Of a stretch of DNA of 64,000 nt, positions 415 to 52,428 are shown one piece after another; positions within the stretch are counted from its first letter, which is position 1, and each line of letters begins with the position of its first letter. The position numbers and the translations under genes are program-made. The notes beneath the pieces are model-generated. The model ran no database searches. It had not been told where the DNA came from and saw only the letters and a list, made by a program, of their open reading frames with translations. Origin of the DNA: Thiotrichaceae bacterium (GTDB lineage: Bacteria; Pseudomonadota; Gammaproteobacteria; Beggiatoales; Beggiatoaceae); contig JAABRD010000013.1 in assembly GCA_011391085.1 (NCBI GenBank), forward strand, positions 1 to 64,000, given 5' to 3'.

Positions 415-2208
415 ATGGCTAAAAATATGACGTTTCCTTCTAACCGCTTAACATTATCATGGTTACTGTGTATCGCTACTCTTTTGAGTGGTTGCAATCC
501 CCATGACGCCAACATGTCATCTGCACAAAATCAATCGGTGGCGGTGGCGAAAAAACCGAGTCATCCGAATTATTTGCGGATCCCGTTCAGTGGCGATGTC
601 AGCACGGTGGACCCCGCCTTTGCTTACGAATTGAACCAGATAGAGATAGTGGGACAGATGTTTATTGCCTTAACTAGTTTTGACCCGAACAGTTATGAAA
701 CGTTGCCTGAACTGGCCACCAATTGGCAAGTGAGTCAAGATGGGACGGTTTATACTTTTCACTTACGCAAAGATGCTAAGTGGTCTTCAGGAGAAACTAT
801 AACGGCCCATGACGTGGTGTGGGCCATCAAGAGGAATTTGGCACCGGAAACGAAGTCTCCCAATGTGGTGACGTTGTATATCATCAAAAATGGAGAAGCT
901 TTCAATAAGGGTACCTTGAACCAATCAACTGCTTCGAGTCCCTCGCCACCGCCACACAATAAGAAGAAAAACGAAAAACAGGAGAAGTCTGCGTCTGCTA
1001 CGCAACCTCAGCAACCTTCAGCACCGTCCCCTTCTTCGCAGTTAGGTGTGCGTGCCTTGGATGATTACACGGTGGAATTTACGTTGGAACATCCTGCGGC
1101 CTATTTTCCTGCCATCGTTAGTATGTGGACGTATCGTCCGTTACCGCGGAAGGTCATTGAACAACATGGGGACCAATGGACTTTACCAGAATATATTCAA
1201 ACCAGTGGTCCTTACACTCTCAAGGAATGGCAGAAAAACTACCGTCTGGTGTTGTCCAAAAATCCTCATTACTATCGGGCGGAGAAAGTGGCGATTTCTG
1301 AAGTGCATTACTACATTGTTCCAGAAAGCACGTTGGGGCTGGCCATGTATGAGAATAATGAACTCGACCTGATTGGTGGACAGGTGTATCTCAATTTGCC
1401 TCAGACAGATATTCCACGCATTAGCGCAGACCCCGTGTTGCGCCAAGATTTATATGTGGGACCAGAGTTTTGTACCGAATGGTATGGTTTCAATGTGCAA
1501 CAACCACCGTTTGATAAAGTTCTGGTTCGCAAAGCCATTGCGGCGGCCATTGATAAGCAAATGTTGATTGACATTGTTATCAAGGGTGCAGAATCGCCGG
1601 CTTCGACGTTTACGCGTCCCCCTGTGTTTGGTGCCGTGGCCCCAGAAGAAGGAATCGGCATCTTGTTTAATCCCACTCAAGCAAAAGCCTGGTTAGCCGA
1701 AGCGGGTTATCCGGAGGGTAAAGATTTTCCCAAGATGACGTTAACCTTCAACTTTTCTGAAGTTCGCAAGGAAGTTGCTATCGCTGTCAAAACGATGTTG
1801 AAACACTATTTGAATATTGACCTGGAATTGCAACCCACGGACTTTGATAGATATATGGCGGCCCTGGGCGACCATACGACGCAAATCTTTCGTAATGGTT
1901 GGTGTTCTGACTATCCTGATGCCAATAATTGGTTGTATGAAGTGTTTCATCCCACCAAGGGTTACAATTGGATTGCCTGGAAAAATGCTGAATTTGCAAA
2001 ACAAGTAGAACTTGCCCAGCGAGTGGCTGACCCTAAAGAACGTCAGCGTCTGTATCGTCGTGCGGAACAGATTTTGACTCAGGAAGAGGTCGCGATTGTT
2101 CCGCTATATTTTTCTAATTCCCAGTTTTTGGTGAAACCGTGGGTAAAAAATTGGTTCAACATGGCCTTTGGTGGACAACATATTGAAGATTGGGCGTTGG
2201 AAAATTGA
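415..2208 (+). CDS. OppA/DppA-type ABC transporter substrate-binding lipoprotein
   Basis: Family 5 extracellular solute-binding protein, probably binding a peptide and delivering it to an inner-membrane permease. The ATG at 415 gives a lipoprotein signal with a hydrophobic core and lipobox LLSGC; the reading frame extends upstream to a TTG at 370, but that extension does not look like a signal peptide. The sequence carries typical family segments (FSGDVSTVDPA, ATNWQVSQDGTVYTFHLRKDAKW, GCNP after the lipobox). An unusual low-complexity insert rich in Pro, Ser, Lys and Gln lies around residues 170-210, where family members have a compact loop. No permease gene is adjacent; the next gene is the ligand-binding/channel fusion. 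The ligand cannot be read from sequence. Confidence 0.88.
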   Translation: MAKNMTFPSNRLTLSWLLCIATLLSGCNPHDANMSSAQNQSVAVAKKPSHPNYLRIPFSGDVSTVDPAFAYELNQIEIVGQMFIALTSFDPNSYETLPELATNWQVSQDGTVYTFHLRKDAKWSSGETITAHDVVWAIKRNLAPETKSPNVVTLYIIKNGEAFNKGTLNQSTASSPSPPPHNKKKNEKQEKSASATQPQQPSAPSPSSQLGVRALDDYTVEFTLEHPAAYFPAIVSMWTYRPLPRKVIEQHGDQWTLPEYIQTSGPYTLKEWQKNYRLVLSKNPHYYRAEKVAISEVHYYIVPESTLGLAMYENNELDLIGGQVYLNLPQTDIPRISADPVLRQDLYVGPEFCTEWYGFNVQQPPFDKVLVRKAIAAAIDKQMLIDIVIKGAESPASTFTRPPVFGAVAPEEGIGILFNPTQAKAWLAEAGYPEGKDFPKMTLTFNFSEVRKEVAIAVKTMLKHYLNIDLELQPTDFDRYMAALGDHTTQIFRNGWCSDYPDANNWLYEVFHPTKGYNWIAWKNAEFAKQVELAQRVADPKERQRLYRRAEQILTQEEVAIVPLYFSNSQFLVKPWVKNWFNMAFGGQHIEDWALEN

Positions 2209-2227
2209 GGCGTTGGGGCAATGCCAT

Positions 2228-2427
2228 TATAGTAATATTCCTCATCACTTGTACCCCCCCCAGCCCCCCCGCGACGTGGATGACTCCCCCCGCGACGTGG
2301 ATGACTCCCCCCGCGACGTGGATGACTCCCCCCCGCGACGTGGATGACTCCCCCCCGCGACGTGGATGACTTCCCCCCGCGTGCGGGGGGGCTGGGGGGG
2401 GTACAAGAGAACAGGAATACTACTATA
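2228..2427. mobile_element. Small element with TATAGTAATATTCC ends and an internal 21-22 bp tandem array
   Basis: The ends TATAGTAATATTCC and GGAATACTACTATA are inverted repeats with one mismatch. Inside are CTTGTACCCCC and its complement, then five copies of a 21-22 bp unit containing GCGACGTGGATGACTCC (2271-2375). Sister elements with the same ends lie at 60573-60708 and 10246-10507. No coding capacity; no clear target duplication was found. Confidence 0.7.
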
Positions 2428-2431
2428 CAAG

Positions 2432-2511
2432 GTAGGGTGCGGTAGGGTGCGTGCCTCAGCACCGTTTCTGGAACCGCACCAGGCCTACTCGGTGCGTAGG
2501 ACGCACCCTAC
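2432..2511. repeat. Inverted repeat with GTAGGGTGCGT arms
   Basis: GTAGGGTGCGT at 2442-2452 pairs with ACGCACCCTAC at 2501-2511. It is an extragenic palindrome abutting the preceding element and has no T-tract, so it is not called a terminator. Confidence 0.6.
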
Positions 2512-2526
2512 TGATGTCGCCTGTCT

Positions 2527-2598
2527 CCCCTCTCCCTCTGGGAGAGGGGCCGGGGGTGAGGGCAACTCTATAAATATCACCCAGATTGCATCACTACC
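2527..2598. mobile_element. 5'-truncated GGTAGTG-type element
   Basis: The palindrome CCCCTCTCCC...GGGGCCGGGGGTGAGGG is followed by a right end ATCACCCAGATTGCATCACTACC-like terminus. This matches the right half of the intact element at 52314-52428, including the internal palindrome. The left terminus is missing. Confidence 0.7.
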
Positions 2599-2641
2599 CT
2601 ATTTTTCATTCTCTATTTAACCATTATTCGAGTACACAACA

Positions 2642-5029
2642 ATGTCTGAAAAAAACATCATTCTCATTCCATCTCCGTTTCCTCAACAAGTTCTGCAACG
2701 ACCATCGTCTGTGGAGAATGCGGCATCGCCAGGGAAAAATAGAAAGTGGTTATATTGGCTACTTTCTTTTTTCCTAGTGGCAGTGCTTGCCGCAGGACTG
2801 GTATTCTTTCAAATCGTGCCTCTGCAAGGAGGAGGTGACACTATTTATATTGCTGCCGCAGGTCCCATGACTGGCAACGGTCAAGCCAATGGTCAGGCGA
2901 TGGTCCGCGGTGCGCAGTTATACCTTGACCAGATTAATAGTCAAGGTGGGATTCATGGCAAAAAAGTCGAACTGCTGGTATATGATGACCAAAACGATAC
3001 GGAACGGGCCAAACAAATAGCTGAAGAGATTGCGACTCACAGTCAAGCCTTGGCGGTCATTGGTCATCAAAGGAGTTCCACAACTTTAGCGGCGGCCGAG
3101 GTTTATCAAAAATATGGCGTTCCCGCGGTCACTGGTACGGCTACCGCAGACAGCATTACGGTCAACAGCCAATGGTATTTTCGTACTATTTTTAACAATA
3201 GTGACCAAAGTGCCTTAGTGGCTAACTACATCCGCAAGGTGCTAAATTTTGAAGAGGCCAATGTCATTTTTGATCAAGACGTGTTTGGGGCAACGTTGGC
3301 AGAGTCTTTCATTAAGACGGCTAAATCCATTGGTCTGACGGTTAAACATCAATGGAGTTTCAACGCCAAAGACAAAAAGAGTATCGAGGATAGTATCCGC
3401 AACATGGTTGCGGCCCTGGAAACTCCTGCCAAATCCACCATGGTATTTGTGGCAACGGCAGCCAAAGAAGGGGTTCAAGTCGTGACCTCTTTGAAACCGT
3501 TAAGTCACGTTCAAATGATTGGGGCCGATACGTTTTCTAGTAGCGCGTTTATGGATGAGTTAAGCAAACTGCCTCAGGAACGTTCTCAGCCTGGGTATTA
3601 TTCTAACGGTATCTATACCACTTCGCCGTTTCTCCCAGATATTGCCGATGAAGTAGGCCAACAGTTCAAATATGCCTTTTTTGCCAAATACGCGGAAGAA
3701 CCAACCATCAATTCATCCATGTATTATGATGCGGCACTGGTGGTTTTACAAGCACTGAGTGCGGTGGGAAGCATGAATGCAACGGCGCCTATAGAGGATC
3801 AACGTAATCAACTGAGAAATCAACTGAGAGGCATTTCTACCTCCGAAAAATCTGTCAAGGGTGTGACAGGGAGTATCTTTTTTGATAGGTATGGAAATGC
3901 GGTAAAAGCAATTCCGATGGGTACTTATCGGCAAGGGCGCCCTGTGGTTGCGCTGTTCCAATTTCAACCGTTGGGGGATTTGCGTGGTGTGGATAACCTC
4001 TTGGGAGAATTTTTGGACAACAACATTATTAACGTCAACGGCAAATTTATGCGCAAAGCGCAAGTCGTTTACGCAGGGATAGATTTCAATGAAATCAACG
4101 AGTTAGACACCAAAAATTCTTCCTTCGTCGCCGATTTTTATCTCTGGTTCCGCTACCAGGGTAAATTGGATGACAGCGGCATCGAGTTTATCAACATTGT
4201 GGATGGTGATGATGGGAAACTTAAAGACCCCGTCGTGGACCAGCTTTCCAAATTGGAACCTAACCTTACCACGAAAACCTACCGCCTAAAAGCGGAATTT
4301 AAAGGTGATTTTGATTACCATGACTACCCGCTGGACCGACAAACCTTACCGATTAAATTTCGGCATCAGAAACTGACTAAAGACCGGTTGATTTATGTCG
4401 TGGACAACCTGGGCATGAAGCAATATCAAGGCAGTCTGGAAGCGGTGGTCAAACAATTTGACAAGAAAAAAGTGTTCACCGTAGGTGGCTGGAAAATTCA
4501 GCAAGCCTCCTTTTTTCAAAATACCAAAAATAACGACTCTACGTTAGGTCTGCCAGAACTGTTTGATGTCCGGCAACCCATTGAGTATTCCCAATTCAAT
4601 GCCCAAATTCAAATCGGCCGTCAACTCTTGAACTTTATGTTGAAGAATTTCAGTACCATTATATTTTTGATGGTACTCGGCTACTTCTCGTTTTTTATTC
4701 CGATTTCGTCGTTTGCCACCCGTTTATCGTTGGGCACCAGTCTCATCATGACGGGGTCATTGTTCCATATCAAACTCAGTTCCGAACTGGCCAACATCGA
4801 CTATTTGGTGCTAATAGAATACCTCTTCTATATGATTTACCTATTGGCGACTTTCGTCGTCATCGTCTCCGTGACTTGTCACATTTTGGATGCCAAAGAT
4901 GCCAAAGGCAATAAGCTGCTGATTGACAAACTAAATCGCTGGGGGAAAATCATCTATCCGCTGATCTTGGTCGCCGGGTTTGGGATAATTGGTTATCTGT
5001 ACCGACATTTGTTGATATTTGGACTCTAA
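2642..5029 (+). CDS. Periplasmic ligand-binding domain fused to a pentameric ligand-gated ion channel-like domain
   Basis: A 795-residue membrane protein. Residues 36-57 form one membrane segment. Residues about 66-445 are a type I periplasmic binding domain of the branched-chain amino acid/LivJ class (GPMTGNGQANGQAMVRGAQL, then GGIHGKKVELLVYDDQ). Residues about 470-660 resemble the extracellular domain of Cys-loop receptors, with the Pro-loop-like DYPLDRQTL at 561-569 and GGWKI at 615-619. Four hydrophobic segments follow (about 661-687, 693-711, 720-746, 768-790), as in the channel domain. The inferred role is a ligand-sensing channel in the inner membrane with binding domains in the periplasm. 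The gene follows an OppA-type lipoprotein gene on the same strand after 430 bases of repeats, so co-transcription is uncertain. Channel activity is inferred, not shown. Confidence 0.82.
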   Translation: MSEKNIILIPSPFPQQVLQRPSSVENAASPGKNRKWLYWLLSFFLVAVLAAGLVFFQIVPLQGGGDTIYIAAAGPMTGNGQANGQAMVRGAQLYLDQINSQGGIHGKKVELLVYDDQNDTERAKQIAEEIATHSQALAVIGHQRSSTTLAAAEVYQKYGVPAVTGTATADSITVNSQWYFRTIFNNSDQSALVANYIRKVLNFEEANVIFDQDVFGATLAESFIKTAKSIGLTVKHQWSFNAKDKKSIEDSIRNMVAALETPAKSTMVFVATAAKEGVQVVTSLKPLSHVQMIGADTFSSSAFMDELSKLPQERSQPGYYSNGIYTTSPFLPDIADEVGQQFKYAFFAKYAEEPTINSSMYYDAALVVLQALSAVGSMNATAPIEDQRNQLRNQLRGISTSEKSVKGVTGSIFFDRYGNAVKAIPMGTYRQGRPVVALFQFQPLGDLRGVDNLLGEFLDNNIINVNGKFMRKAQVVYAGIDFNEINELDTKNSSFVADFYLWFRYQGKLDDSGIEFINIVDGDDGKLKDPVVDQLSKLEPNLTTKTYRLKAEFKGDFDYHDYPLDRQTLPIKFRHQKLTKDRLIYVVDNLGMKQYQGSLEAVVKQFDKKKVFTVGGWKIQQASFFQNTKNNDSTLGLPELFDVRQPIEYSQFNAQIQIGRQLLNFMLKNFSTIIFLMVLGYFSFFIPISSFATRLSLGTSLIMTGSLFHIKLSSELANIDYLVLIEYLFYMIYLLATFVVIVSVTCHILDAKDAKGNKLLIDKLNRWGKIIYPLILVAGFGIIGYLYRHLLIFGL

Positions 5030-37042: not shown

Positions 37043-37057
37043 CTCAGGTGAATGACT

Positions 37058-38023
37058 ATGGCTACTGAAGACCTCCATCAATCACTGGAAAAAGCCACCG
37101 TCAAAATTTGGGTGGCCAATGAGTTTAAAGGCACTGGCTTCTTCATTACATCCAAGGGCTATGTACTGACAGCCTATCACTGTGTAGGGAAGGAGTTAGT
37201 TTTCTCTCAAAAAATTGGTAAAACGCCTCCTGACATTTTTGTAGAAACCCACGGTTCTGGCAAATTCCAGGCCCAATTGGAAATGAACAAAAGTTTGGAA
37301 TCCTCTGATATTGCCGTGTTAAAGGTCGAACATCAAACAACCGAATGTGTCCCGTTAGGGCGAATCTCCAATTCATCTAAAGAAAAGGACATCGTAGCCC
37401 TGGGTTACCCCGCCGGCCATCGTCCCGAAAATCAGGAAATTGCCACCTATATTGGCAAACTCTCCCGGTTTTGTACTAATCAACAATTTGAAACCGAAGC
37501 GATTAAGGGACAAGGACAAAGTGGCGGCCCCGTTTATCACTACCAGACCAGGCGTGTCATTGGCCTAGCCGTATCGGGCTACGACCCTAATGAAACCAAA
37601 GTGTTTGGCATCGGCCGGGCGGCCCAATTTGATGACCTCTTTCAAAGATGGCCAGCACTGGAAGCTATCAATGAGGAAGTGGCCAAAGCCTGGGAAAAAC
37701 GTTGCTATTCCTCCGCTTCTGAACTTAGGAAGCTGACACGAGAGGAGAAACAGAAAATCGTCAACGCCCTGCTGAAGTTTTCCAATATGAGTGATCGAAA
37801 CGAACGTCTAGTGGTATTGAGACAACTGTCACCTAAAATATTCAATAACATTCGTGACGCATCGCAATCCCGACTCCATGTCATAAACATTGTCGAGACT
37901 TGTCTCGACTATACCGAAGGTATGACGGAGTTAGTGGAAGTGTTACGAGACTTGGAAGACGATCCAAATTCAATCCCCATGCAAGCACTTGACGAAGTGC
38001 TAAAGGAGATTTATCATCGATAA
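37058..38023 (+). CDS. Trypsin-like serine peptidase with C-terminal effector-associated domain
   Basis: A 321-residue protein. The peptidase domain (about 10-205) has the triad His41 (TAYHCVG), Asp84 (SSDIAVLKV) and Ser155 (GQGQSGGPV), with no signal peptide, so it acts in the cytosol. Residues about 226-320 form a helical effector-associated domain (EEKQKIVNALLKF, HVINIVETCLDYTEGMTEL) that is clearly related to the N-terminus of the VMAP protein at 39086. Such death-domain-like modules are thought to bring effectors and VMAP together. The ATG at 37058 is preferred over 37052 because AGGTG is then seven bases upstream. It is probably the proteolytic component of the system. A strong terminator follows. 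Confidence 0.85.
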   Translation: MATEDLHQSLEKATVKIWVANEFKGTGFFITSKGYVLTAYHCVGKELVFSQKIGKTPPDIFVETHGSGKFQAQLEMNKSLESSDIAVLKVEHQTTECVPLGRISNSSKEKDIVALGYPAGHRPENQEIATYIGKLSRFCTNQQFETEAIKGQGQSGGPVYHYQTRRVIGLAVSGYDPNETKVFGIGRAAQFDDLFQRWPALEAINEEVAKAWEKRCYSSASELRKLTREEKQKIVNALLKFSNMSDRNERLVVLRQLSPKIFNNIRDASQSRLHVINIVETCLDYTEGMTELVEVLRDLEDDPNSIPMQALDEVLKEIYHR

Positions 38024-38417: not shown

Positions 38418-38837
38418 ATGGGCAAACAGTATTTGTTGGATACCAACATTATTTCAGCCATGCTGAAACCATCACAACACATTTGGAAAAAAATACAGGA
38501 TGTGATTGTCGCCGATGAGAAAATCTTTATCAGCACCATCTCCTATTACGAGACCAAACGCGGTTTGTTAGCCACGCAAGCCACGACAAAATTGCAACGT
38601 TTTGATTACATCCGTCAAAAGTATGAGATGGTCGGCATAGATAACGAATCGGTGCTAGACACTGCCTCCGAAATCTATGCCACCCTGAAAAAATGTGGCC
38701 AACCTCTGCCCGATGCCGACATTCTGATTGCGGCGATGGCCAAAACGTATGATTTAATTTTAGTGACAGATGATAATCATTTTGAGAGAATGGAAGGTGT
38801 GCGGGTGGAAAATTGGGTAGTGATGCAATCTGGGTGA
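38418..38837 (+). CDS. VapC-family PIN toxin 1, C-terminus altered by an element
   Basis: A 139-residue PIN-domain ribonuclease toxin. It shows LLDTNIISAM (first Asp), SYYETKRGLL (Glu), PDADILIAAMAKTY (Asp pair) and VTDDNHF. The last residues VVMQSG and the stop codon are read from the left end of the GGTAGTG element at 38816. The original end, GTAAGAACCGCTTAA, survives beyond the element and would have given ENWVRTA, like ENWVRES in its paralogue at 42455. The change affects only the extreme C-terminus, so activity may be kept. It pairs with the gene at 38102. Confidence 0.88.
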   Translation: MGKQYLLDTNIISAMLKPSQHIWKKIQDVIVADEKIFISTISYYETKRGLLATQATTKLQRFDYIRQKYEMVGIDNESVLDTASEIYATLKKCGQPLPDADILIAAMAKTYDLILVTDDNHFERMEGVRVENWVVMQSG

Positions 38838-38980
38838 AATATCGTGCGGTTTCTCTTAGGTCTGGAACTGTGATTGAGATGATTAAATGAAGGCTATGAA
38901 AGGAGGCTTGACTAATCATAGTCCATCTGAAAATCATTCTAATCATAGTTCAGACATTTCACCCACATTGCATCACTACC
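38816..38980 (+). mobile_element. 165-bp GGTAGTG element with 8-bp target duplication
   Basis: Ends GGTAGTGATGCAATCTGGGT and ACCCACATTGCATCACTACC are inverted repeats. GAAAATTG is duplicated at 38808-38815 and 38981-38988. The interior (GTGCGGTTTCTCTTAGGTC, AAAGGAGGCTTGA, AATCATAGTTCAGAC) is nearly identical to that of 41908-42072 and, inverted, 51359-51523. A hairpin ACCTTGAAGGTTTT lies just beyond at 39017-39048. Confidence 0.93.
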
Positions 38981-39085: not shown

Positions 39086-40501
39086 ATGATGAGTATCGAA
39101 GTTTCTGCATATTATATTTGGTCTTACCATTATGACCATCAGAAAAAACTGGTCAACGCTTTGTTGAATTGTACAAATTTGTTGTCAACTACACTTTCCT
39201 GGCCAGATATAAAATCTGGCGACACCAAGCAACAACAAGTTGAAAATCTTGTTGACACTTGCCTGAGATACCCTGGTAGAATTGAACTCTTGGTGGACGA
39301 TCTATTTTCTCATGAAAGAGACTCACAAAACATGTTAAAAGTTTTTGACGTGTTGGACCAGGTAATCAAGTTGCCAGTTCCCTGGAAAGAAGTCACCCAC
39401 TTGAAAAGTTTATTGACGGAGGCTTGTGGTATCCCCAATCATCAAGAGTTACTGAACATGTGTGGAAAATGCCTCTCCACTGAAGAAAGGTTGCCAAAAG
39501 AAGTTTCTCAAGAACCCAAGGACCGAGATACTGTAATTTACTTGACCGATTGGCTGGTTAGAAAAGGCCGTCTATCAACAGGCAAAGTTCCTATTTTAGA
39601 GTTTGTCAGAGAAGTGGGACAGTCTGTCAATAAACCTGAACTTAACATTTGGGTTAACGAGATGACTGCACATTTTGCCTCGACAGTGGTTGAACCGGTA
39701 GTGAAAACGGTTGAAAAAAATGAGGGTCACGAAATATCAACAACCTCTTTTCTGACCCCGTTGCATTTGGTGATAGTGTTAGAACCAAAATCTAAAAAGT
39801 CCAAAAAATACAATGTTCAGGCCTGGTTATTTGAACAGGGAAAAAATTATCCTAAACAAATTCACGAAAAGGAAAACATCGTGTTGAAGGAATTGCCGGA
39901 ACAAATTAAGCAGGCGCGTGGAAAAATCAATCAGCTTCTGATTCAGAATCAGAACCGTCTCACCCTGGAATTTTTTCTGCCGATAGACCTACTTCTCAGT
40001 TACCCTCTTGAGGAAGAATATTTGCCCCAGAGTAAGGGGCCAATTGGTTGTGATTATTATGTATTGGTACGCCCGTTAGAACGTCTCCAAAATGAGGATG
40101 CTTTTTTACGTTTATGCAAAATTTGGAACCAAGGTGAAAAGTTACCACAATCATTTGCAAGTTGTGCAAGATGGCTGACTGAAATCGATCCCAAATGGGG
40201 TAAGGACCTGGGTAAAGTTTTTAGTTTGAATTTTAAACCGGAACCTGCTTTTCTTGGTGAATTGATTGGATTCGGTACGCCAATCGTGATGTGGATTAGA
40301 GAGGAAACCGCTAAAGAAAGGCATTCTAGGTTACATCAAGAATGGTCATGCTGTCGTCTGGCAGATATACCCAAAACTCTTTATGAGGAAAGGTGTTCTA
40401 TCTTTTGGGACCAGGATAAAAAACACACCGGCCACCTTTCTTTACTGTGGGATGACCCAACCAGGGTCCCGCCTAGTTTCCAACTTGGACCACCCACTTA
40501 A
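39086..40501 (+). CDS. EAD-VMAP (vWA-MoxR associated protein)
   Basis: A 471-residue cytosolic protein. Residues about 12-95 are an effector-associated domain (KKLVNALLNCTNL, ENLVDTCLRYPGRIELLVDDL) homologous to the C-terminus of the peptidase at 37058. A helical middle region (100-215) follows. Residues about 230-470 match the VMAP C-terminal domain: LHLVIVLEPKSKK, PIGCDYYVLVRPLERL, a C-rich SFASCARWL and the closing LSLLWDDPTRVPPSF. In the vWA-MoxR-VMAP systems described by comparative genomics, this protein is the hub linking effectors with the ATPase. AAGGGAG precedes the start, and the MoxR gene begins 24 bases downstream. The enzymatic role, if any, is unknown. Confidence 0.82.
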   Translation: MMSIEVSAYYIWSYHYDHQKKLVNALLNCTNLLSTTLSWPDIKSGDTKQQQVENLVDTCLRYPGRIELLVDDLFSHERDSQNMLKVFDVLDQVIKLPVPWKEVTHLKSLLTEACGIPNHQELLNMCGKCLSTEERLPKEVSQEPKDRDTVIYLTDWLVRKGRLSTGKVPILEFVREVGQSVNKPELNIWVNEMTAHFASTVVEPVVKTVEKNEGHEISTTSFLTPLHLVIVLEPKSKKSKKYNVQAWLFEQGKNYPKQIHEKENIVLKELPEQIKQARGKINQLLIQNQNRLTLEFFLPIDLLLSYPLEEEYLPQSKGPIGCDYYVLVRPLERLQNEDAFLRLCKIWNQGEKLPQSFASCARWLTEIDPKWGKDLGKVFSLNFKPEPAFLGELIGFGTPIVMWIREETAKERHSRLHQEWSCCRLADIPKTLYEERCSIFWDQDKKHTGHLSLLWDDPTRVPPSFQLGPPT

Positions 40502-40525: not shown

Positions 40526-41491
40526 ATGCCTGAAACTAACCGCACTTGGTGGATTTACCAAGGCACTAACCAACCTGATAAAGAGGCCATTACCCGTTTA
40601 CCACCGGCCCCACCCTGGCGACAATTTACCGACAAGGCCAGTGACAACCGAGGCACGCAATTTAAACCGACTGACCCAAACGAAATAGAATTAGTCAACG
40701 CCGCTTTGTACCTACGCCGACCCTTACTGGTCACGGGCAGACCGGGCACAGGCAAAACTACCTTAGCCTTTGCCGTTGCCCATGAATTGCAATTGGGGAA
40801 GGTTTTACACTGGTCCATCACCACCCGTTCCACCTTGCCAGAAGGACTCTATCGTTACGATGCTATCGCCCGCTTACAAGATGCCTCCTTGCGAGGAGAT
40901 CGAACCACATTGCCTGACATCAGTCGTTATTTACGCTTAGGTCCATTAGGTACGGCATTTGCCGCAGGAAAACGGCCACGGGTGTTGTTAATTGACGAGA
41001 TTGATAAAAGTGATATTGACTTACCCAATGACTTACTGCATATTTTTGAAGAGGGCGAATTTGAAATTCCTGAACTGGCCCGCTTGCCAAAAGACCAACA
41101 AACGGTTAAGATTCGTTCCTATGATGATAATGGCGAGACCATTGAGATTAAACAGGGACGAGTCCGTTGTCAAGAGTTTCCATTGGTGATTATGACCAGC
41201 AATGGCGAGAAAGAATTTCCACCTGCATTTTTGCGCCGTTGCTTACGGTTAGAAATGCAACCTCCTACTAAGGAACAACTGAGTGAGATTGTCACGGCCC
41301 ATTTGGCATCCATTTCCAAAGAAGAGATAGCGGGGTTACTTGATGAATTTGTGCAACGGCGGGAAAAACAAGATTTGGCCAATGACCAATTGTTAAATGC
41401 CGCGTATTTGGTGCTAAATAGTATCAAAGTGTTGGAACGACAAGAGTTGCAGGATGCGTTATGGAAATCGTTGTCTGGGGAGGGGGAGTAG
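40526..41491 (+). CDS. MoxR-family AAA+ ATPase
   Basis: A 321-residue AAA+ ATPase. It has Walker A GRPGTGKT (about 70-77), Walker B VLLIDEIDKS (about 153-162), sensor 1 VIMTSNGEKEFPPAFLRRC and the NDLLHIFEEGEF region typical of MoxR. It probably remodels or activates a vWA partner using ATP. It sits between the VMAP gene and a small gene, with the vWA/FGE protein 1.6 kb downstream, the arrangement expected for a ternary vWA-MoxR-VMAP system. AGGA lies upstream of the ATG. Confidence 0.93.
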   Translation: MPETNRTWWIYQGTNQPDKEAITRLPPAPPWRQFTDKASDNRGTQFKPTDPNEIELVNAALYLRRPLLVTGRPGTGKTTLAFAVAHELQLGKVLHWSITTRSTLPEGLYRYDAIARLQDASLRGDRTTLPDISRYLRLGPLGTAFAAGKRPRVLLIDEIDKSDIDLPNDLLHIFEEGEFEIPELARLPKDQQTVKIRSYDDNGETIEIKQGRVRCQEFPLVIMTSNGEKEFPPAFLRRCLRLEMQPPTKEQLSEIVTAHLASISKEEIAGLLDEFVQRREKQDLANDQLLNAAYLVLNSIKVLERQELQDALWKSLSGEGE

Positions 41492-41907: not shown

Positions 41908-42072
41908 GGTAGTGATGCAATCTGGGTGAAATATCGTGCGGTTTCTCTTAGGTCTTGAACTCTGATTGAGATGATTAGATGAGGGCTATGAAAGGAGGCT
42001 TGACGAATCATAGTCCATCTGAAAATCATTCTAATCATAGTTCAGACATTTCACCCACATTGCATCACTACC
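41908..42072 (+). mobile_element. 165-bp GGTAGTG element
   Basis: Nearly identical throughout to the element at 38816-38980, in the same orientation. The flanks share only AATT, so a full target duplication is not evident. It separates the MoxR-small gene unit from the second antitoxin/VapC pair. Confidence 0.9.
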
Positions 42073-42454: not shown

Positions 42455-42883
42455 ATGAAACGCTACCTGTTGGATACCAACATTATCACTGCCATGGTCA
42501 AGCAATCATCGCCAGTTTGGAAGAAAGCGATGGCAGTAGTGATGGCTGGAGAGAAAATTTTTATTAGCACCATCTCCTACTATGAAACCAAACGAGGTCT
42601 ATTAGCCACGCAAGCAACCACCAAATTGCAACGTTTTGACCAAATCCGTCAAGACTATGAAATGGTTGGCATAGATAACGAACCCGTGCTTGACACTGCT
42701 TCGGAAATCTATGCCGTTCTGAAGAAACGTGGTACTCTCTTGCCTGATGCCGACATTCTGATTGCGGCAATGGCCAAAACTTATGGCTTAACCTTGGTGA
42801 CTAATGATAGTCATTTTGATAGAATTGAAGGGTTGCAGGTGGAAAATTGGGTGAGAGAGTCGACCAGTCCGGTTGAAAAGTAG
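42455..42883 (+). CDS. VapC-family PIN toxin 2
   Basis: A 142-residue PIN-domain toxin closely related to that at 38418 (LLDTNIITAM, SYYETKRGLLATQATT, PDADILIAAMAKTY, VTNDSHF). It has an intact C-terminus, VENWVRESTSPVEK, which shows what the interrupted copy originally looked like. CAGGAGG precedes the ATG. After the stop comes the ACCTGACAGGTCT hairpin at 42887-42919, a possible terminator or element remnant. Confidence 0.9.
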   Translation: MKRYLLDTNIITAMVKQSSPVWKKAMAVVMAGEKIFISTISYYETKRGLLATQATTKLQRFDQIRQDYEMVGIDNEPVLDTASEIYAVLKKRGTLLPDADILIAAMAKTYGLTLVTNDSHFDRIEGLQVENWVRESTSPVEK

Positions 42884-42962: not shown

Positions 42963-43057
42963 GGTAGTGATGCAATCTGGGTGATGGCCGAGGACTGCCA
43001 GTCCTTAAAGGACTGGCAGTCCTGACAGCACTTCATCACCCACGTTGCATCACTACC
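42963..43057 (+). mobile_element. 95-bp GGTAGTG element with AGGACTGCCAGTCC interior
   Basis: Ends GGTAGTGATGCAATCTGGGT and ACCCACGTTGCATCACTACC surround an AGGACTGCCAGTCCTT palindrome. The flanks do not show a perfect duplication. It lies 43 bases before the SAV_2336/FGE gene, where it could affect expression. Confidence 0.85.
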
Positions 43058-43099: not shown

Positions 43100-45589
43100 A
43101 TGCTTAACCCATTAATTACCGCCCTTCACTCCCTTGACCTTGACCCCACTGCCGAAGAATTGGCGGAAGTGTTATGGCTGGCGTTACAGATGCGTCGGGC
43201 AAAGCCGTTAAAGCCACTTTCTCAAAGGTTGTGGTTGGCGTTACAGATTCGTATGGCAATGTTGTTAAAGCCATTTTTTCAAGGATTGAAGAATAGTCAG
43301 TCGTTGAAATCTCTTCCTATGTTTCGCAAAGAGACCGGCCGTCAGGAGGAAACTCAAATTGACACCGTTAAAACTGACGATAGTTTCTCCCTCTATCCAA
43401 GTTCTCCAGGAAAGAAGAACCGTAGCGGGCTACCGTTTAGAACGCCAGCGGCCCGGATGTTACCTCATGCCCTCAAATTAGCCCGTGCATTGCGTCCTTT
43501 GAAGCAATGGGTGACGTCTCGGACGATTTATCAAATCAATGAAGCCGCTACCATAGAACAGATTGCTGAAACGCAGATTTGGTTGCCGATATTGCAAGGG
43601 ATTCCAGAACGTCGTTTTGACATGATGTTGGTGGTTGAAAACAGTGGTTCTATGGAGATTTGGCCGCCGGTGATTGCCGAATTTCAGAAGTTGTTAGAAA
43701 ATCTGGGCGCGTTTCGGAAGGTGCAAACGTGGGAATTGCGAGTGGCGGAGGGTAAAGTTCAGCTGTATACCCAGACGCATACTACCACTCGTTCTCGTCA
43801 TGGCAAAGAGTTACTGGACCCCACGCAACGACGGTTGATTTTAGTGGTCAGTGATGCTGTGTCGGCGGCCTGGTATAATGGTCAAATCACGGAATTGTTA
43901 GAGTATTGGGGACACCATCATCCCGTGGCGATTTTGCAGATGTTACCGCAACGATTATGGCGTGGTACGGGTTTCAGTGAAGGGTTGCGAGTGAATGTAC
44001 GGGCAACGGTGGCCAATGTGGCCAATCGGCAATTAAGTGATGATAGCGCAGACGCTTGGTTGACGGATGATATTCCTAAAGGTATCAAAGTGCCTATTGT
44101 CACTTTGGAAGCCGAATCTTTGAATAATTGGGCTAAGTTAGTGATGGGGAAGGGGGATAATTGGGTACAAGGTGTGATATTTGAATCCAGTCGCCTCTCT
44201 TCAAAACAGGAAGTCACACCTTCCCCTGCTTCCTCTGGTTCGGGCGAAGTGACTGCCGCACAACGAGTTCAACGTTTTGTTGCGCTGGCCTCCCCGCTGG
44301 CCCAACAATTGGCAGGCTATTTAGCGGCGGCCCCGTTGACGTTGGAAGTGATGCGGTTGGTGCAACAGGTGATGTTGCGAGAATCGGGGCAAATTCATTT
44401 AGCGGAAGTGTTTTTGGGTGGGTTGTTGAAACGGGAGGAGGTGTCTTGGGTCAAGTATGATTTTCATGATGGGGTTCGAGAGATATTGTTGGATTCTAGG
44501 TTGGTGCCGGAAGGGATTGAGGTGTTGAAAGTGGTGTCGATGTTTATCGAACGACGGCTGGGGTGTGCTTTGGATTTTAAGGCGTGGTTAGAGAATCCGG
44601 CGGGGACTCAGGTGGTGTTGGAGGAGGGGAGTCGGCCATTTGCGAAGGTGGCTTGCAAAGTGTTGAAGAGGTTGGGAGGAGAATATGCAACGTTGGCGCA
44701 ACAAGTGGAAGTGGAGTTGCATCAATTGCAACCTGCTATGGAAAAGCGTAAAAATCAAAAGCGTAAGGAACAATTGTTCACTTTTGAAACCGTCTTAGTG
44801 GACCGTCGTGGTCAAATAATTGAACGTCAACCCCGACAAGCCTATCAAATAGTGATAGACTTGGGTGAGGGAGTTAACTTGGAAATGGTCCATATCCCAG
44901 CTGGCACTTTTCTGATGGGTGCGGCACCGAATGAAGTTGGGGCAGATTCAGATGAATACCCACAGCATCCAGTTACCGTGAAATCTTTTTATATGGGCAA
45001 ATATCCTGTGACGCAGGCGCAATGGCAGGCGGTGATGGGCGGCGACAATCCGTCATATTTTAAAGGCGAAAATCGCCCAGTGGAACAGGTCTCTTGGGAA
45101 GATGCTAAGGCATTCTGTGACCGCTTGTCACAACGTACAGCTCAAACTGTTCGCTTGCCTAGTGAAGCGGAATGGGAGTATGCGTGTCGGGCTGGTACCA
45201 CGACTCCCTTTTATTTTGGTGAGACCATCACACCTGACCTGGTCAATTATGATGGTAATTATCCTTATGGCGGTGCTCCAGAGGGCAAATATCGTCAAGA
45301 GACGACTCCTGTGGGCAGTTTTCCTCCCAATGCGTTTGGCTTGTATGATATGCACGGCAATGTCTGGGAGTGGTGTGAAGATGTTTGGCATAAGAATTAT
45401 GAGGGTGCGCCGAGTGATGGGAGTGTTTGGGAGACAGGAGGAGAGAATAGCTACCGCCTGCTGCGCGGCGGTTCGTGGGACACTCTTGCCGTTTGGTGCC
45501 GTGCCGCGTCTCGCTACAGGCTCACGCCAGGTTCCCGCTACAATACCGTTGGGTTGCGTGTCGTTCTGTGTGCTGTGTGGACTCTGTAA
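43100..45589 (+). CDS. SAV_2336/vWA-like protein with C-terminal FGE-sulfatase domain, probable DGR target
   Basis: An 829-residue protein. Residues 1-33 resemble the SAV_2336 N-terminal motif (PTAEELAEVLWLALQMRR). Residues about 165-340 form a vWA-like domain; the metal site reads VVENSGSM, with Glu in place of the first Asp, and LILVVSDAVSAAWYNG follows. A helical region (380-560) leads to an FGE-sulfatase/C-type-lectin-fold domain at 591-829 (MVHIPAGTFLMG, GKYPVTQAQW, RLPSEAEWEYACRAGT, GLYDMHGNVWEWCEDV). The end, LLRGGSWDTLAVWCRAASRY, followed by VGLRVV, matches the variable region of DGR target proteins. It probably supplies the recognition surface of the vWA-MoxR-VMAP system. No ribosome binding site is obvious. 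Confidence 0.83.
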   Translation: MLNPLITALHSLDLDPTAEELAEVLWLALQMRRAKPLKPLSQRLWLALQIRMAMLLKPFFQGLKNSQSLKSLPMFRKETGRQEETQIDTVKTDDSFSLYPSSPGKKNRSGLPFRTPAARMLPHALKLARALRPLKQWVTSRTIYQINEAATIEQIAETQIWLPILQGIPERRFDMMLVVENSGSMEIWPPVIAEFQKLLENLGAFRKVQTWELRVAEGKVQLYTQTHTTTRSRHGKELLDPTQRRLILVVSDAVSAAWYNGQITELLEYWGHHHPVAILQMLPQRLWRGTGFSEGLRVNVRATVANVANRQLSDDSADAWLTDDIPKGIKVPIVTLEAESLNNWAKLVMGKGDNWVQGVIFESSRLSSKQEVTPSPASSGSGEVTAAQRVQRFVALASPLAQQLAGYLAAAPLTLEVMRLVQQVMLRESGQIHLAEVFLGGLLKREEVSWVKYDFHDGVREILLDSRLVPEGIEVLKVVSMFIERRLGCALDFKAWLENPAGTQVVLEEGSRPFAKVACKVLKRLGGEYATLAQQVEVELHQLQPAMEKRKNQKRKEQLFTFETVLVDRRGQIIERQPRQAYQIVIDLGEGVNLEMVHIPAGTFLMGAAPNEVGADSDEYPQHPVTVKSFYMGKYPVTQAQWQAVMGGDNPSYFKGENRPVEQVSWEDAKAFCDRLSQRTAQTVRLPSEAEWEYACRAGTTTPFYFGETITPDLVNYDGNYPYGGAPEGKYRQETTPVGSFPPNAFGLYDMHGNVWEWCEDVWHKNYEGAPSDGSVWETGGENSYRLLRGGSWDTLAVWCRAASRYRLTPGSRYNTVGLRVVLCAVWTL
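45461..45570 (+). other. Candidate DGR variable region
   Basis: It starts at the invariant CTGCGCGGCGGTTCGTGG and ends at GGGTTGCGTGTC. At the positions that vary in DGR targets, 13 of 16 codons end in C or T (GAC ACT CTT GCC GTT, TCT, TAC, CTC, TCC, TAC AAT ACC GTT). That is what A-specific mutagenesis of AAC/AAT template codons would leave. The stretch is poor in A compared with the rest of the gene. No matching template repeat or reverse transcriptase is in the window. Confidence 0.6.
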
Positions 45590-45967
45590 CCCTTTTTGCT
45601 ATAGACCTGTTGCCCTTTGCCCTTTTTCCTTTTGCCCTTTTGAAGGTTGGAAAGGTACTTATTTAGGGAGGGAGTGGGGTTTGAGCCGCCGCTTTGCGGT
45701 GGCCGGCGCTAAAATTTTAATACACGTATGTTTTATATGTTTATTAGAGTACACACCGTGAGGACAACGAATTTAGAAATAAACGAATGGGTCAAGAGGA
45801 ATCAATTCGTTTATTTCTAAATTCGTTGTACTCATTTTAAATAGCACGATACCAAGCCCGTCTCAAGTCGTGGTATTTGCTAAATTGTTGTGATAGACTA
45901 TTGCTTACTATAAAAAACCTTGTACATTTTAACTCGCCCCCTGGTTTAATCAGGAAACCATATTAAT
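45590..45967 (+). other. Region after the variable gene with pyrimidine tract and hairpins
   Basis: It holds a pyrimidine-rich tract with repeated TTGCCCTTT (45608-45645), a GCCGCCGCTTTGCGGTGGC hairpin (about 45683-45701), and a 25-bp perfect inverted repeat with ACAACGAATTTAGAAATAAA arms (45764-45828). Downstream hairpins are a feature of DGR target sites, but here the function is unproven. No gene is supported. Confidence 0.5.
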
Positions 45968-46441
45968 ATGAAAAACACCGTCTATCTGGACACCACGATT
46001 CCCAGTTATCTGTTTGAAGAACGCGACGAATTGCAACCGTTTGTGCAGATTACGCAACGTTGGTGGGCCGAGGAACGTCAAGAGTTTGACGTGTATCTTT
46101 CCCAGGAAACGCTGGCCGAACTAAATCAAGGGAATTATCCTAATAAAGACAAAGTGTTAGCGTCGGTGGAGGGTATCGCAACTTTACCGTATAACAAACG
46201 TATCGATGAAATTGTTCAGGTGTATATAGACCACTACTTGATGCCCCGGAAGTTGCAAGGTGATGCCCGACATTTAGCGTATGCCTCGTTCTATCAAATG
46301 GATTTGTTGTTGACCTGGAACTGCAACCATTTAGCCAATGCGAATAAACTCAAACATATCCAAATCATCAATTCTCGTTTGGGGTTGCCCGTGCCTCAAT
46401 TGGTCACCCCCTTACAATTATTTAAGGAGAACATTCCATGA
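45968..46441 (+). CDS. PIN-domain toxin-like protein
   Basis: A 157-residue PIN-fold protein of the type that begins VYLDTTIPSYL. Acidic residues appear in VYLDTT, LSQETLAELNQG and GDARHLAYASFY, and WNCNHLANA matches the later family motif. The next gene overlaps by four bases (ATGA) and encodes a 74-residue partner, so the two form one toxin-antitoxin-like unit with the toxin first. The gene begins an island of such modules. Confidence 0.75.
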   Translation: MKNTVYLDTTIPSYLFEERDELQPFVQITQRWWAEERQEFDVYLSQETLAELNQGNYPNKDKVLASVEGIATLPYNKRIDEIVQVYIDHYLMPRKLQGDARHLAYASFYQMDLLLTWNCNHLANANKLKHIQIINSRLGLPVPQLVTPLQLFKENIP

Positions 46442-47038: not shown

Positions 47039-47455
47039 ATGACAGACATTTTCATTGACACGTCGGGCTGGGCGGAGTTGGTTGACCCGAAATTACCTTA
47101 TCATCCCCTAGCCGCCAAAATTTACTATCAGACTCGACAACGGAAAGCGAAAATTGTTACGACTAATTACGTGATTGCGGAAGTGGTGGCATTGTTAACC
47201 AGTCCTCTGCGTTTCCCTAGACCGCGAATTATCCAATTTGTTGAAGGTTTGAAAACTTCTCCACTGGTGAAAATTGTGTATATCGATGCCACGTTGGATG
47301 ACCAGGCCTGGCAATTATTAACCCGCCGTGCAGATAAAAATTGGAGTCTAGTGGATTGTGCCAGTTTCGTGGTGATGCGTCACTATAACCTCACTGAAGC
47401 CTTGACGACAGACCATCACTTTGAACAAGCCGGTTTGATTCGGTTGTTGAAGTAG
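47039..47455 (+). CDS. VapC-family PIN toxin
   Basis: A 138-residue PIN-domain ribonuclease toxin: IFIDTSGWAELVD (first Asp), TTNYVIAEVVALL (Glu), WSLVDCASFVVM (Asp) and ALTTDHHFEQAGL (Asp). The full catalytic set is present. It is translated directly after its antitoxin. A remnant of a different toxin begins right at its stop codon. Confidence 0.92.
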   Translation: MTDIFIDTSGWAELVDPKLPYHPLAAKIYYQTRQRKAKIVTTNYVIAEVVALLTSPLRFPRPRIIQFVEGLKTSPLVKIVYIDATLDDQAWQLLTRRADKNWSLVDCASFVVMRHYNLTEALTTDHHFEQAGLIRLLK

Positions 47456-47911: not shown

Positions 47912-48226
47912 ATGATTTACAACGTCATTCTCAGCAAACAAGATAATCAATACTTGGCCAGAACCAAAGAATGGCCTGAAGTTTGGGTCACAGGTGCGAC
48001 GCGAGAACAAGCTATTTCAGGAGTCCAAACCAAACTGATGGAATATCTGACCCAGGACCTGGAAGTTGTTCCGATTGAAGTCCCTATCCCGACTCACACG
48101 GCCAATCCTTGGCTAGAAAAATTCGGTTGGTTCAAAGATGACCCAACCTTTGCAGATTTACAGGCCGAAATAGCGGCTTATCGACGCACTTTGCCACAAG
48201 CCAACGCTTCAGAGGTTGACGCATGA
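47912..48226 (+). CDS. HicB-like antitoxin of VapC pair
   Basis: A 104-residue protein whose first 50 residues resemble the HicB fold (MIYNVILSKQDNQYLARTKEWPEVWVTGATREQAI). The second half (NPWLEKFGWFKDDPTFADLQ) is a toxin-binding tail seen in cyanobacterial and Beggiatoa-like PIN partners. AGAGGAAG precedes the ATG. The stop overlaps the start of the next gene by four bases, so translation is coupled. Confidence 0.78.
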   Translation: MIYNVILSKQDNQYLARTKEWPEVWVTGATREQAISGVQTKLMEYLTQDLEVVPIEVPIPTHTANPWLEKFGWFKDDPTFADLQAEIAAYRRTLPQANASEVDA

Positions 48227-48648
48227 CCCTCTATGTGTTAGACAGTGACCATCTGAGTTTACATCAGCGTGGTTATGAACCGCTTAAACCTTATCTGTTA
48301 ACCATACCTCCTGACCAAATAGGCATCACTATTATCAGTGTGGAAGAATTAATTCGAGGACGGTTAGCCCAAGTTCGTCGTGCGGTTCAGCCCGAAGAAC
48401 GAGTGAAGGCTTATTATTGGTTGACCAGAACTTTTGAGTTTCTAAAAGGGTTCCAAGTGTTAACGTATGATGCCACCGCCGAAATTCATTTTCAATCGTT
48501 ACTTTCTCAAAAGTTACGAATCGGTATGCAAGACTTAAAAATTGCGGCCACGGTCCTGAGTCAAAATGCTATCCTAGTGACCCGTAACCGTAAAGATTTT
48601 GAGAAGGTCCCTCAGTTGAAAATGGTAGATTGGGCCAGTGAGGAGTAG
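48223..48648 (+). CDS. VapC-family PIN toxin
   Basis: A 141-residue PIN toxin: YVLDSDHLSLHQRG (Asp), ISVEELIRGRL (Glu), IGMQDLKIAATVL (Asp) and LVTRNRKDFEKV (Asn in place of the usual last Asp). This subtype is common in cyanobacteria and large sulfur bacteria. It overlaps the upstream antitoxin gene by four bases. Confidence 0.88.
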   Translation: MTLYVLDSDHLSLHQRGYEPLKPYLLTIPPDQIGITIISVEELIRGRLAQVRRAVQPEERVKAYYWLTRTFEFLKGFQVLTYDATAEIHFQSLLSQKLRIGMQDLKIAATVLSQNAILVTRNRKDFEKVPQLKMVDWASEE

Positions 48649-49075: not shown

Positions 49076-49352
49076 CTCGTTCCCACGCGCCCGCGTGGGA
49101 ATGCCGTGCGGACGCGCCAGCGTCCCGATCTGAAACCAGATGTCCAGGTCCTGAGTGAACACCGCCTAGCTTCGGCGGTAGTGATGTAATCTAGGTGATA
49201 GGCAAGGACTGGCAGTCCTGATACTTCTATCACCCACATTGCATCACTACCGCTTCGGCCACACGGAGGCGTAGTACACAAACCTTGAACCGCTTTCGAA
49301 CGGGACGCTGGCGCGTCCACACGGCATTCCCACGCGGGCGCGTGGGAACGAG
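49076..49352. mobile_element. Large inverted-repeat element with a nested insertion
   Basis: Arms of about 50 bases (49076-49126 and 49300-49352), each with CGTTCCCACGCG, GCGTGGGAATGCCGT and GGACGCGCCAGCGTCCCG, are inverted copies. The 75-bp element at 49177-49251 is inserted inside. Without that insert and its duplication the element would be about 194 bp. No coding capacity. Confidence 0.8.
49177..49251 (+). mobile_element. 75-bp GGTAGTG element nested in a larger repeat, with 8-bp duplication
   Basis: Ends GGTAGTGATGTAATCTAGGT and ACCCACATTGCATCACTACC surround one AGGACTGGCAGTCCT palindrome. GCTTCGGC is duplicated at 49169-49176 and 49252-49259. It shows that GGTAGTG elements moved after the larger element was already in place. 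Confidence 0.92.
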
Positions 49353-51358: not shown

Positions 51359-51523
51359 GGTAGTGATGCAATGTGGGTTCTCTGTCTGAACTCTGATTAG
51401 AATGATTTTCAGATGGACTATGATTAGTCAAGCCTCCTTTCAGAGTCCTCATTTAATCATCTCAATCAAAGTTCAAGACCGACGAAAAATCTCTCGATAT
51501 TTCACCCAGATTGCATCACTACC
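51359..51523 (-). mobile_element. 165-bp GGTAGTG element, inverted, with 8-bp target duplication
   Basis: It is the reverse complement of the 38816 and 41908 elements. CAAACTTT is duplicated at 51351-51358 and 51524-51531. It lies 40 bases upstream of the CreD-like gene's start. The rest of 51319-51812 is AT-rich with a half AAGAATTATTGC repeat at about 51765-51782. Confidence 0.92.
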
Positions 51524-52313: not shown

Positions 52314-52428
52314 GGTAGTGATGCAATGTGGGTGATATTCATAGAGTTTCCCTCACCCCCGGCCCCTCTCCCAGAGGGAGAGGGGCCGGGGGTGAGGGTA
52401 ACCATATCACCCACATTGCATCACTACC
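52314..52428. mobile_element. 115-bp GGTAGTG element with GC-rich palindrome and 8-bp target duplication
   Basis: Ends GGTAGTGATGCAATGTGGGT and ACCCACATTGCATCACTACC. TAAAAAAC is duplicated at 52306-52313 and 52429-52436. The interior is CCCTCACCCCCGGCCCCTCT and its complement, the same palindrome as at 6-42 and 2527-2562. Confidence 0.92.

What the first reader, a model, noticed from the sequence alone, without database searches (positions are those of the whole stretch)
43100..45589. Conflict-system protein with a probable DGR-diversified FGE domain
The SAV_2336/vWA-like protein ends in an FGE-sulfatase domain whose C-terminus has the form of a diversity-generating retroelement target: invariant LRGGSW, a variable stretch, CRAASR, a variable stretch, then VGLRVV. 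Thirteen of 16 codons at the expected variable positions end in C/T and the stretch is poor in A, as expected if AAC/AAT template codons were mutated at A. Targeted hypermutation of the recognition part of a vWA-MoxR-VMAP system would make this an adaptive-like sensor. No reverse transcriptase or template repeat is in this window, so the driving retroelement must be elsewhere.
Basis: partly seen in the sequence, partly recalled or inferred. Interest (0 to 1): 0.9.

Follow-up and report, generated by a model that had tools for sequence, protein, structure and literature searches.

The report
Sensor gene rewritten by distant retroelement
A bacterial defence-type protein carries a sensor-like tip that has been rewritten at set positions by a mutation-making retroelement located elsewhere in the same genome, a known kind of arrangement shown here base by base for a new case.

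Summary
The 829-aa protein at 43100-45589 (SAV_2336 N-terminal domain plus FGE/C-type-lectin domain) ends in a DGR variable repeat (VR). On another contig of the same genome (C67) lies a complete DGR: cis target, Avd, DGR-type reverse transcriptase, template repeat (TR). The window's VR, 45455-45578 (124 nt), aligns to that TR without gaps; all 14 differences fall on its 24 adenines, none on its 100 other bases (Fisher p = 1.8e-12). Four more targets on C47 (two), C50 and C67 bring this to 64 of 65 differences at template A. Upstream DNA of the five targets is only 51-87% identical, so the repeats look overwritten by cDNA. The orthologue in a Thiomargarita MAG keeps 4 of 14 residues at template-A codons, against 86% in the domain upstream. 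Neighbours are a MoxR-type ATPase, a VMAP-C protein and a trypsin-EAD2 protein: a VMAP ternary conflict system, with the vWA part unproven. DGR-diversified VMAP components (Kaur 2020) and in-trans diversification (Doré 2024) are published, so this is a new member of a known kind. Sensing and present-day activity remain inferred.

The parts
43100..45589 (+). DGR target gene, 829 aa: SAV_2336 N-terminal domain plus C-terminal FGE/C-type-lectin domain; the genome's only match to SAV_2336_NTERM
   Evidence: NF041121 426 bits, PF03781 203 bits; 1 match genome-wide
44756..45586 (+). FGE (CLec) domain stretch that was modelled; closest solved folds PvdO and the DGR target TvpA
   Evidence: AlphaFold mean pLDDT 95.5; PvdO 5hha Z 33.0, TvpA 2y3c Z 31.5
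45455..45578 (+). Variable repeat (VR), 124 nt, gapless match to the TR at G000:C67:3357-3480; 14 of 24 template-A positions changed, 0 of 100 others
45579..45640 (+). Putative IMH-type 3' end: just after the 124-nt core the VRs read GGACT where the TR reads GTACT; the first 60 nt after the core, across the stop codon, are 45-59 of 60 identical between pairs of the five targets
   Evidence: 8 of 8 VRs examined; pairwise identities
40526..41491 (+). MoxR-type AAA+ ATPase of the ternary system
   Evidence: AAA_5 35.6 bits, cut-off 22; bpMoxR 21.2 bits, below its cut-off 27
39086..40501 (+). VMAP protein: C-terminal VMAP-C; N-terminal EAD2-like domain
   Evidence: PF20028 86.5 bits; PF19956 17.2 bits, below its cut-off 23.8; single-pair BLASTP with the trypsin protein's EAD2, 29% identity, E=3e-06
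37052..38023 (+). Trypsin-like protease with C-terminal EAD2, predicted effector
   Evidence: PF13365 61.3 bits, PF19956 60 bits
42963..43057 (+). MITE-like element with terminal inverted repeats directly upstream of the target gene; ends of the same family lie at 38816-38980 and 41908-42072 and in the DGR locus on C67

Best explanation
The last ~41 codons of this gene are the recipient site of a diversity-generating retroelement acting in trans. On contig C67 an intact cassette reads: FGE target with VR (194-1345), Avd (1801-2163), DGR-type RT (ATG at 2280, stop codon ends at 3338), TR (3357-3480). The TR RNA is copied by the RT with errors at adenines, and the cDNA replaces matching repeats, flanked by identical 5' and 3' ends, in five genes, of which this is one. 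By contig ends it lies at least ~47 kb from the RT. [Shown by sequence: cassette, TR, five VRs, A-restricted differences, homogenised repeats.] [Inferred: ongoing activity.] The diversified FGE face probably serves as a ligand-binding sensor of a VMAP ternary system. Binding would be passed by the SAV_2336/vWA-like part and the MoxR ATPase to the VMAP protein, whose EAD2-like domain recruits the trypsin-EAD2 protease for a defensive or suicidal output. [Inferred from domain content and from the published models of Kaur 2020 and Doré 2024.]
For: TR and five VRs: 14/14, 13/13, 8/8, 16/16 and 13/14 mismatches at TR A; spectrum A>G 23, A>C 22, A>T 19, G>C 1. VR non-A bases are 99-100 of 100 identical in every pair of targets while the 600 nt upstream are 51-87% identical. 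One intact RT of this kind: best PDB hit 8ub7, E=6.8e-46, next a group II RT at 1.8e-19; motifs IGNLTSQ and YVDD. One Avd: NF033474 131 bits, cut-off 80 (single copy). Orthologue L054: template-A codons 4/14 residues conserved, against 0.857 in FGE upstream of the VR and 0.926 in other VR codons; third positions of template-A codons 0.93 against 0.75 in the rest of the gene. Across 56 aligned FGE sequences the 14 template-A codons have mean entropy 3.30 bits, against 1.24 for the domain upstream of the VR and 1.29 for other VR codons, p = 2e-9. Of 17 FGE stretches in the genome, the 5 with a VR and the TR itself match the template; the other 11 do not. Ternary-system neighbours.
Against: No population data: held genomes are one per species and no same-genus genome was listed, so current activity is not shown. 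A MITE-like element sits at the Avd/RT junction and supplies Avd's last codons, which could impair expression. A second DGR-type RT (C47) is a pseudogene, one VR (C50) carries a stop codon and one (C67) a non-A change, so part of the system may be decaying. The window and C67 are separate contigs of a 140-contig assembly, so the joint genome rests on the assembly. NCBIfam names the RT only as group II-like, below cut-off (132.9 of 300 bits). The vWA fold of the N-terminal part is not established. No ligand and no defence phenotype are known.
Confidence: 0.88

Rival explanations
1. The VRs were produced by a DGR in the past, but the element no longer acts on this gene; the window repeat is a frozen relic.
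For: MITE-like element at the Avd/RT junction; dead second RT on C47; stop codon in the C50 VR; no polymorphism data.
Against: RT and Avd frames are open, and the RT aligns over residues 2-339 with the solved RT 8ub7. Four of five VRs have 0 of 100 non-A changes from the TR, including three silent sites that differ from all three VRs of the relative, so rewriting is recent on the scale of the species split.
Confidence: 0.25
2. The repeats are similar because of ordinary gene duplication or gene conversion between FGE paralogues, with positive selection at binding residues.
For: Targets are paralogues; C47_11k and C47_24k are 87% identical over the 600 nt upstream and 78% over the 300 nt that follow the first 60 downstream.
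Against: Conversion would not spare exactly the A positions of a repeat that lies next to an RT: 64 of 65 changes are at A. The near-identity begins at the 5' end of the core even for the C50 target, whose upstream DNA is only 51-54% identical to the others.
Confidence: 0.02
3. The FGE domain is a catalytic formylglycine-generating or related enzyme, and the variation concerns substrate choice rather than sensing.
For: Strong sequence and fold match to FGE, PvdO and EgtB. In the alignment to human FGE the query's one cysteine there falls on the column of the second reactive cysteine.
Against: The column of the first reactive cysteine holds a template-A codon (Thr in the window; Gly, Asp, Ser or Tyr in the other four VRs), so the pair is not kept. 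That C336/C341 are the reactive pair comes from mutant entry titles and recall. The alignment is ambiguous: the query cysteine may instead match the later Cys of RCAAR.
Confidence: 0.07

Closest known systems
DGR-associated VMAP ternary conflict systems (Kaur et al. 2020, eLife, PMC7159879; section 25 read; other passages by search)
   Same: MoxR ATPase, VMAP-C protein and a vWA component fused to an FGS/FGE domain with a DGR VR; [quoted passage not shown] trypsin and EAD domains in the systems; [quoted passage not shown]
   Different: Here the vWA place is taken by a SAV_2336 N-terminal domain whose vWA fold is not established; trypsin and VMAP are separate proteins with related EAD2 domains
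Thiohalocapsa PB-PSB1 DGRs 2/4/5 (Doré et al. 2024, PNAS, PMC10907252; abstract, part 1 of 3 of Results, part 1 of 2 of section 11, and search passages seen)
   Same: vWA-CLec targets in VMAP systems; [quoted passage not shown] degenerate DGR copies; MITE-like repeats at the loci; a protein kinase domain among the target annotations of its Fig. 2 legend
   Different: One TR for five targets with different N-termini here; one FGE domain per target where DGRs 4 and 5 have three CLec domains; an AAG codon in the TR gave a stop in one VR, whereas that paper reports a codon composition that prevents nonsense codons; no population sequencing here
Treponema denticola TvpA (PDB 2y3c)
   Same: FGE/C-type-lectin DGR target; Z 31.5, rmsd 1.8 over 226 residues
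   Different: Different organism and no ternary-system partners (recalled)
BPP-1 phage DGR (Mtd, bRT, Avd)
   Same: RT, Avd, TR and VR with A-directed changes (recalled); RT best PDB match 8ub7 (that 8ub7 is the BPP-1 RT is recalled); Mtd fold Z 14.0
   Different: Phage tail target, single cis target (recalled)

Membership tests
Diversity-generating retroelement (DGR) | RT of the DGR class | tested here: met
   Best PDB match 8ub7 E=6.8e-46, next 1.8e-19 (8ub7 as a DGR RT is recalled); motifs IGNLTSQ and YVDD (that the first is the DGR form is recalled). No NCBIfam RT model above cut-off; the best is group II RT/maturase, 132.9 of 300 bits. No tree was made
Diversity-generating retroelement (DGR) | Accessory protein Avd | tested here: met
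   NF033474 DivGenRetAVD 131 bits, cut-off 80; PF22296 bAvd 71.1 bits, cut-off 40
Diversity-generating retroelement (DGR) | Template repeat beside the RT, near-identical to the VR | tested here: met
   TR C67:3357-3480, 18 nt after the RT stop codon
Diversity-generating retroelement (DGR) | VR differs from TR essentially only at template adenines | tested here: met
   14 of 14 in the window VR; 64 of 65 over five VRs
Diversity-generating retroelement (DGR) | IMH versus IMH* difference at the 3' end | tested here: inconclusive
   8 of 8 VRs have G and the TR has T at the second base after the core, which fits; that this base or region directs homing was not tested
Diversity-generating retroelement (DGR) | VR diversity arising in living cells | not testable with these tools
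   No reads or same-species genomes held
VMAP ternary conflict system | VMAP-C domain protein | tested here: met
   PF20028 86.5 bits, cut-off 27
VMAP ternary conflict system | MoxR-type AAA+ ATPase | tested here: met
   AAA_5 35.6 bits, cut-off 22; bpMoxR only 21.2, below 27
VMAP ternary conflict system | vWA-domain component | tested here: inconclusive
   SAV_2336_NTERM 426 bits; no Pfam family up to E=1 for residues 1-552; profile comparison aligns only 19 columns around a VENSGSM loop, P=3.5e-4, probability 37%, reversed control P=0.17; N-terminal model pLDDT 38.7
VMAP ternary conflict system | EAD-linked effector (trypsin) | tested here: met
   Trypsin_2 and EAD2 above cut-off; EAD2-like N-terminus in VMAP, below cut-off
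Formylglycine-generating enzyme (catalytic) | Reactive cysteine pair | tested here: not met
   One of two columns has cysteine in the alignment to human FGE; the other is a template-A codon, Thr here. The pair's identity is from entry titles and recall; the alignment is ambiguous there

The most novel reading that the evidence does not exclude
A single DGR works as a genome-wide hub: one template and one RT keep re-randomising the sensor tips of at least five proteins with different outputs (a VMAP/MoxR protease system, two Ser/Thr kinases, two others), including a target left orphan beside a dead RT. The template's AAG codon also lets the element switch a sensor off by creating a stop codon, as seen in the C50 copy.
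Probability: 0.3. Interest if true: 0.65.

Novelty: new member of a known kind. Interest (0 to 1): 0.45.

Why it matters
It turns a sequence-only guess into a tested case of a DGR that has acted in trans on a VMAP-type conflict-system protein. It gives the exact 24 positions (14 changeable codons, about 3.4e13 protein variants) at which reads can be checked for present-day diversification. The closest relatives found are Thiomargarita MAGs; in the held library 3 papers hold 'diversity-generating' and 'Thiomargarita' (PMC10907252, where the genus occurs only in the reference list, and two group II intron papers seen as listings) and 0 hold 'diversity-generating retroelement' and 'Beggiatoaceae'. 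The same TR-matched repeat on kinases and on a MoxR-linked protein offers a way to ask whether one diversified ligand site is plugged into several outputs.

Tried and rejected
Gene conversion or duplication alone was rejected (A-restriction; near-identity confined to the repeat and its 3' end). Catalytic FGE was put low; on rechecking I corrected an earlier view that no cysteine was kept there, and raised that rival slightly (0.06 to 0.07). Other RVT_1 matches (4 in all) were checked as possible drivers: C50:4986 gave no tblastn match to the DGR RT at E<=1 and is absent from the RT protein search; C52:20692 is distant (28% over 87 aa); C47:13125-13844 is 65% identical but has five stop codons. 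Only one TR was found genome-wide.

Led nowhere: the N-terminal model from 4 sequences (pLDDT 38.7) was not used for fold searches; PDB sequence searches with that domain gave only chance-like hits (best E 0.16 and 0.051). The first VR alignment had one copy on the wrong strand and is superseded. A first vWA profile comparison (probability 86%) was spoiled by wrong-strand loci in my script and is superseded, where 15 of 20 fetched vWA loci (22 matches in the genome) were tried and 14 used (one dropped for a stop). One search's third item (C50 stretch) was read in an unchecked frame and tells nothing. PADLOC was scanned too and gave no match for the target or the VMAP protein. Of 85 FGE stretches found, 55 plus the window's were given to the alignment used for fold and entropy. 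No RT tree was made. A 2016 Thiomargarita nelsonii genome paper (PMC4853749) was searched for 'retroelement' (0) and 'reverse transcriptase' (5 passages seen, on group II introns and counts).

Full report
What was claimed and what is there. The ORF at 43100-45589 is real. Its N-terminal part matches NF041121 SAV_2336_NTERM (426 bits), the only match in the genome. Its C-terminal third is an FGE-sulfatase domain, modelled with mean pLDDT 95.5. The best solved folds are PvdO (Z 33.0) and the DGR target TvpA (Z 31.5), followed by formylglycine-generating enzymes and related proteins; the DGR targets TaqVP (14.6) and Mtd (14.0) come far lower in the same list.

The template was found. A DNA search of the window's own genome (5.77 Mb, 140 contigs, 99.9% complete) with 45440-45595 returned the window itself, five other strong places (E 3e-43 or better) and three chance-like hits (E 0.4-5). 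One of the five lies directly after a reverse transcriptase on contig C67. The locus reads: FGE target 194-1345 with VR, Avd 1801-2163, RT (open frame 2160-3338, first ATG beyond a MITE-like element at 2280), TR 3357-3480. The RT's best solved relative is 8ub7 (E=6.8e-46, far ahead of group II RTs at 1.8e-19), listed only as 'Reverse transcriptase'; that it is the BPP-1 DGR RT is recalled. It has IGNLTSQ and YVDD. The accessory protein passes NCBI's 'diversity-generating retroelement protein Avd' cut-off. Genome-wide there is one intact RT of this kind plus one copy on C47 with five stops, one Avd and one TR.

Adenine-restricted differences. Aligned without gaps over 124 nt, the TR has 24 A and 100 other bases. 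Mismatches to the TR: window 14 (14 at A), C47_24k 13 (13), C47_11k 8 (8), C50_87k 16 (16), C67_1k 14 (13; one G>C). In total 64 of 65 are at A, going to G 23, C 22, T 19 times. Fisher p for the window VR is 1.8e-12. Of the 15 codons with a template A, 14 can change the residue, for about 3.4e13 proteins. Of 17 FGE stretches in the genome, five carry a VR and one is the TR itself; the other 11 do not match the template.

The repeat was copied in rather than inherited. Between the five targets the 600 nt upstream are 51-87% identical. Yet the non-A bases of the VR agree at 99 or 100 of 100 in every pair, and the 60 nt downstream at 45-59 of 60. The second base after the core is G in all eight VRs examined (five here, three in the relative) and T in the TR, which fits an IMH/IMH* difference (recalled concept; function not tested).

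The relative. A scan of species genomes (334 stretches encoding a relative, 78 loci kept) gave as closest a Thiomargarita MAG (isolate SulCav_PC08_66_44_25), 79% identical in the best segment with residues 1-829 matched (L054). Against it, template-A codons keep 4 of 14 residues; the FGE domain upstream keeps 85.7% and other VR codons 92.6%. Third positions in template-A codons are 93% identical against about 75% in the rest of the gene. Its three VRs (L054, L057, L058) agree with this genome's TR at 94, 96 and 97 of 100 non-A bases. All three share three silent differences from this TR and its five VRs (core positions 44, 92, 98); L054 has three further private ones and L057 one. The simplest reading is that each species' repeats follow their own template; for the relative this is inference, since its TR was not seen. 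Across 56 aligned FGE sequences the template-A codons are far more variable than the rest (mean entropy 3.30 bits against 1.24 upstream and 1.29 in other VR codons).

The setting. Upstream lie a trypsin-EAD2 protein (37052-38023), a VMAP-C protein with an EAD2-like N-terminus (39086-40501) and a MoxR-type ATPase (40526-41491). Kaur et al. 2020 (PMC7159879; section 25 read; passages) describe such VMAP ternary systems, often with a vWA-FGS fusion and a DGR whose TR may be 'elsewhere in the genome'. The vWA identity of the SAV_2336 part stays open: only a short VENSGSM loop aligns to vWA profiles. The other four targets are two Ser/Thr kinase-FGE fusions on C47, a short FGE protein next to Avd on C67, and an FGE protein on C50 that ends early where the template's AAG became TAG. 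The FGE's reactive cysteine pair is not kept: one column has cysteine, the other is a template-A codon.

How it most likely works. Shown: template, machinery, and A-directed rewriting of five genes on four contigs, one of them this gene, at least ~47 kb from the RT by contig ends (for contig lengths). Inferred: that rewriting continues, that the variable face binds ligands, and that binding is relayed through MoxR and VMAP to the trypsin protease. Doré et al. 2024 (PMC10907252; parts seen) propose this kind of sensor role and report remote targets explained by in-trans action, so the kind is known. Points against activity: a MITE-like element at the Avd/RT junction, a dead second RT, one stop-bearing VR, and no population data.

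Verdict. The finding is a well-supported new member of a published kind. The more novel reading, one hub element driving sensors with different outputs and a template that can also switch a target off, is not excluded.

Noticed in passing
G000:C50:87503-87626 (L134:10504-10627): The C50 target's VR carries TAG where the TR has AAG, ending the frame at 420 aa with 22 codons left before the next stop. The template codon can give a stop, whereas Doré 2024 reports templates that avoid nonsense codons. A sequencing or assembly error is not excluded.
   Followed up: partly
G000:C47:13125-13844: Second DGR-type RT, 65% identical to the intact one, with five stops, ~1.8 kb downstream of a kinase-FGE target whose VR matches the C67 template at 100 of 100 non-A bases: an orphan target apparently served by the other element.
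   Followed up: partly
window 38816-38980, 41908-42072, 42963-43057, 49177-49251, 51359-51523, 52314-52428; C67:123-287, 1539-1703, 2142-2256: MITE-like family with ends GGTAGTGATGCAATCTGGGTGA: 372 + 379 end matches genome-wide at up to 2 mismatches, control 0; 13 ends in the window at up to 3. Copies lie between genes of the conflict system, on both sides of Avd, and over the start of the C67 target frame.
   Followed up: partly
window 38418-38837, 42455-42883, 45968-46441, 47039-47455, 48223-48648: Five PIN-domain ORFs (four above Pfam's cut-off, 45968-46441 below it) interspersed with and following the conflict system; possibly toxin-antitoxin modules.
   Followed up: no
window 45764-45787 and 45806-45829: Perfect 24-bp inverted repeat with an 18-nt loop, about 175 nt downstream of the target gene; terminator or small mobile element.
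   Followed up: no
relatives G004, G010 and ten others: 12 of 56 searched relatives have DNA matching this TR at E<=0.001, some only over the conserved LRGGSW stretch; G004 and G010 show AAC/AAT-rich template-like repeats (L034/L046, L033), so related DGRs probably occur in the family.
   Followed up: no
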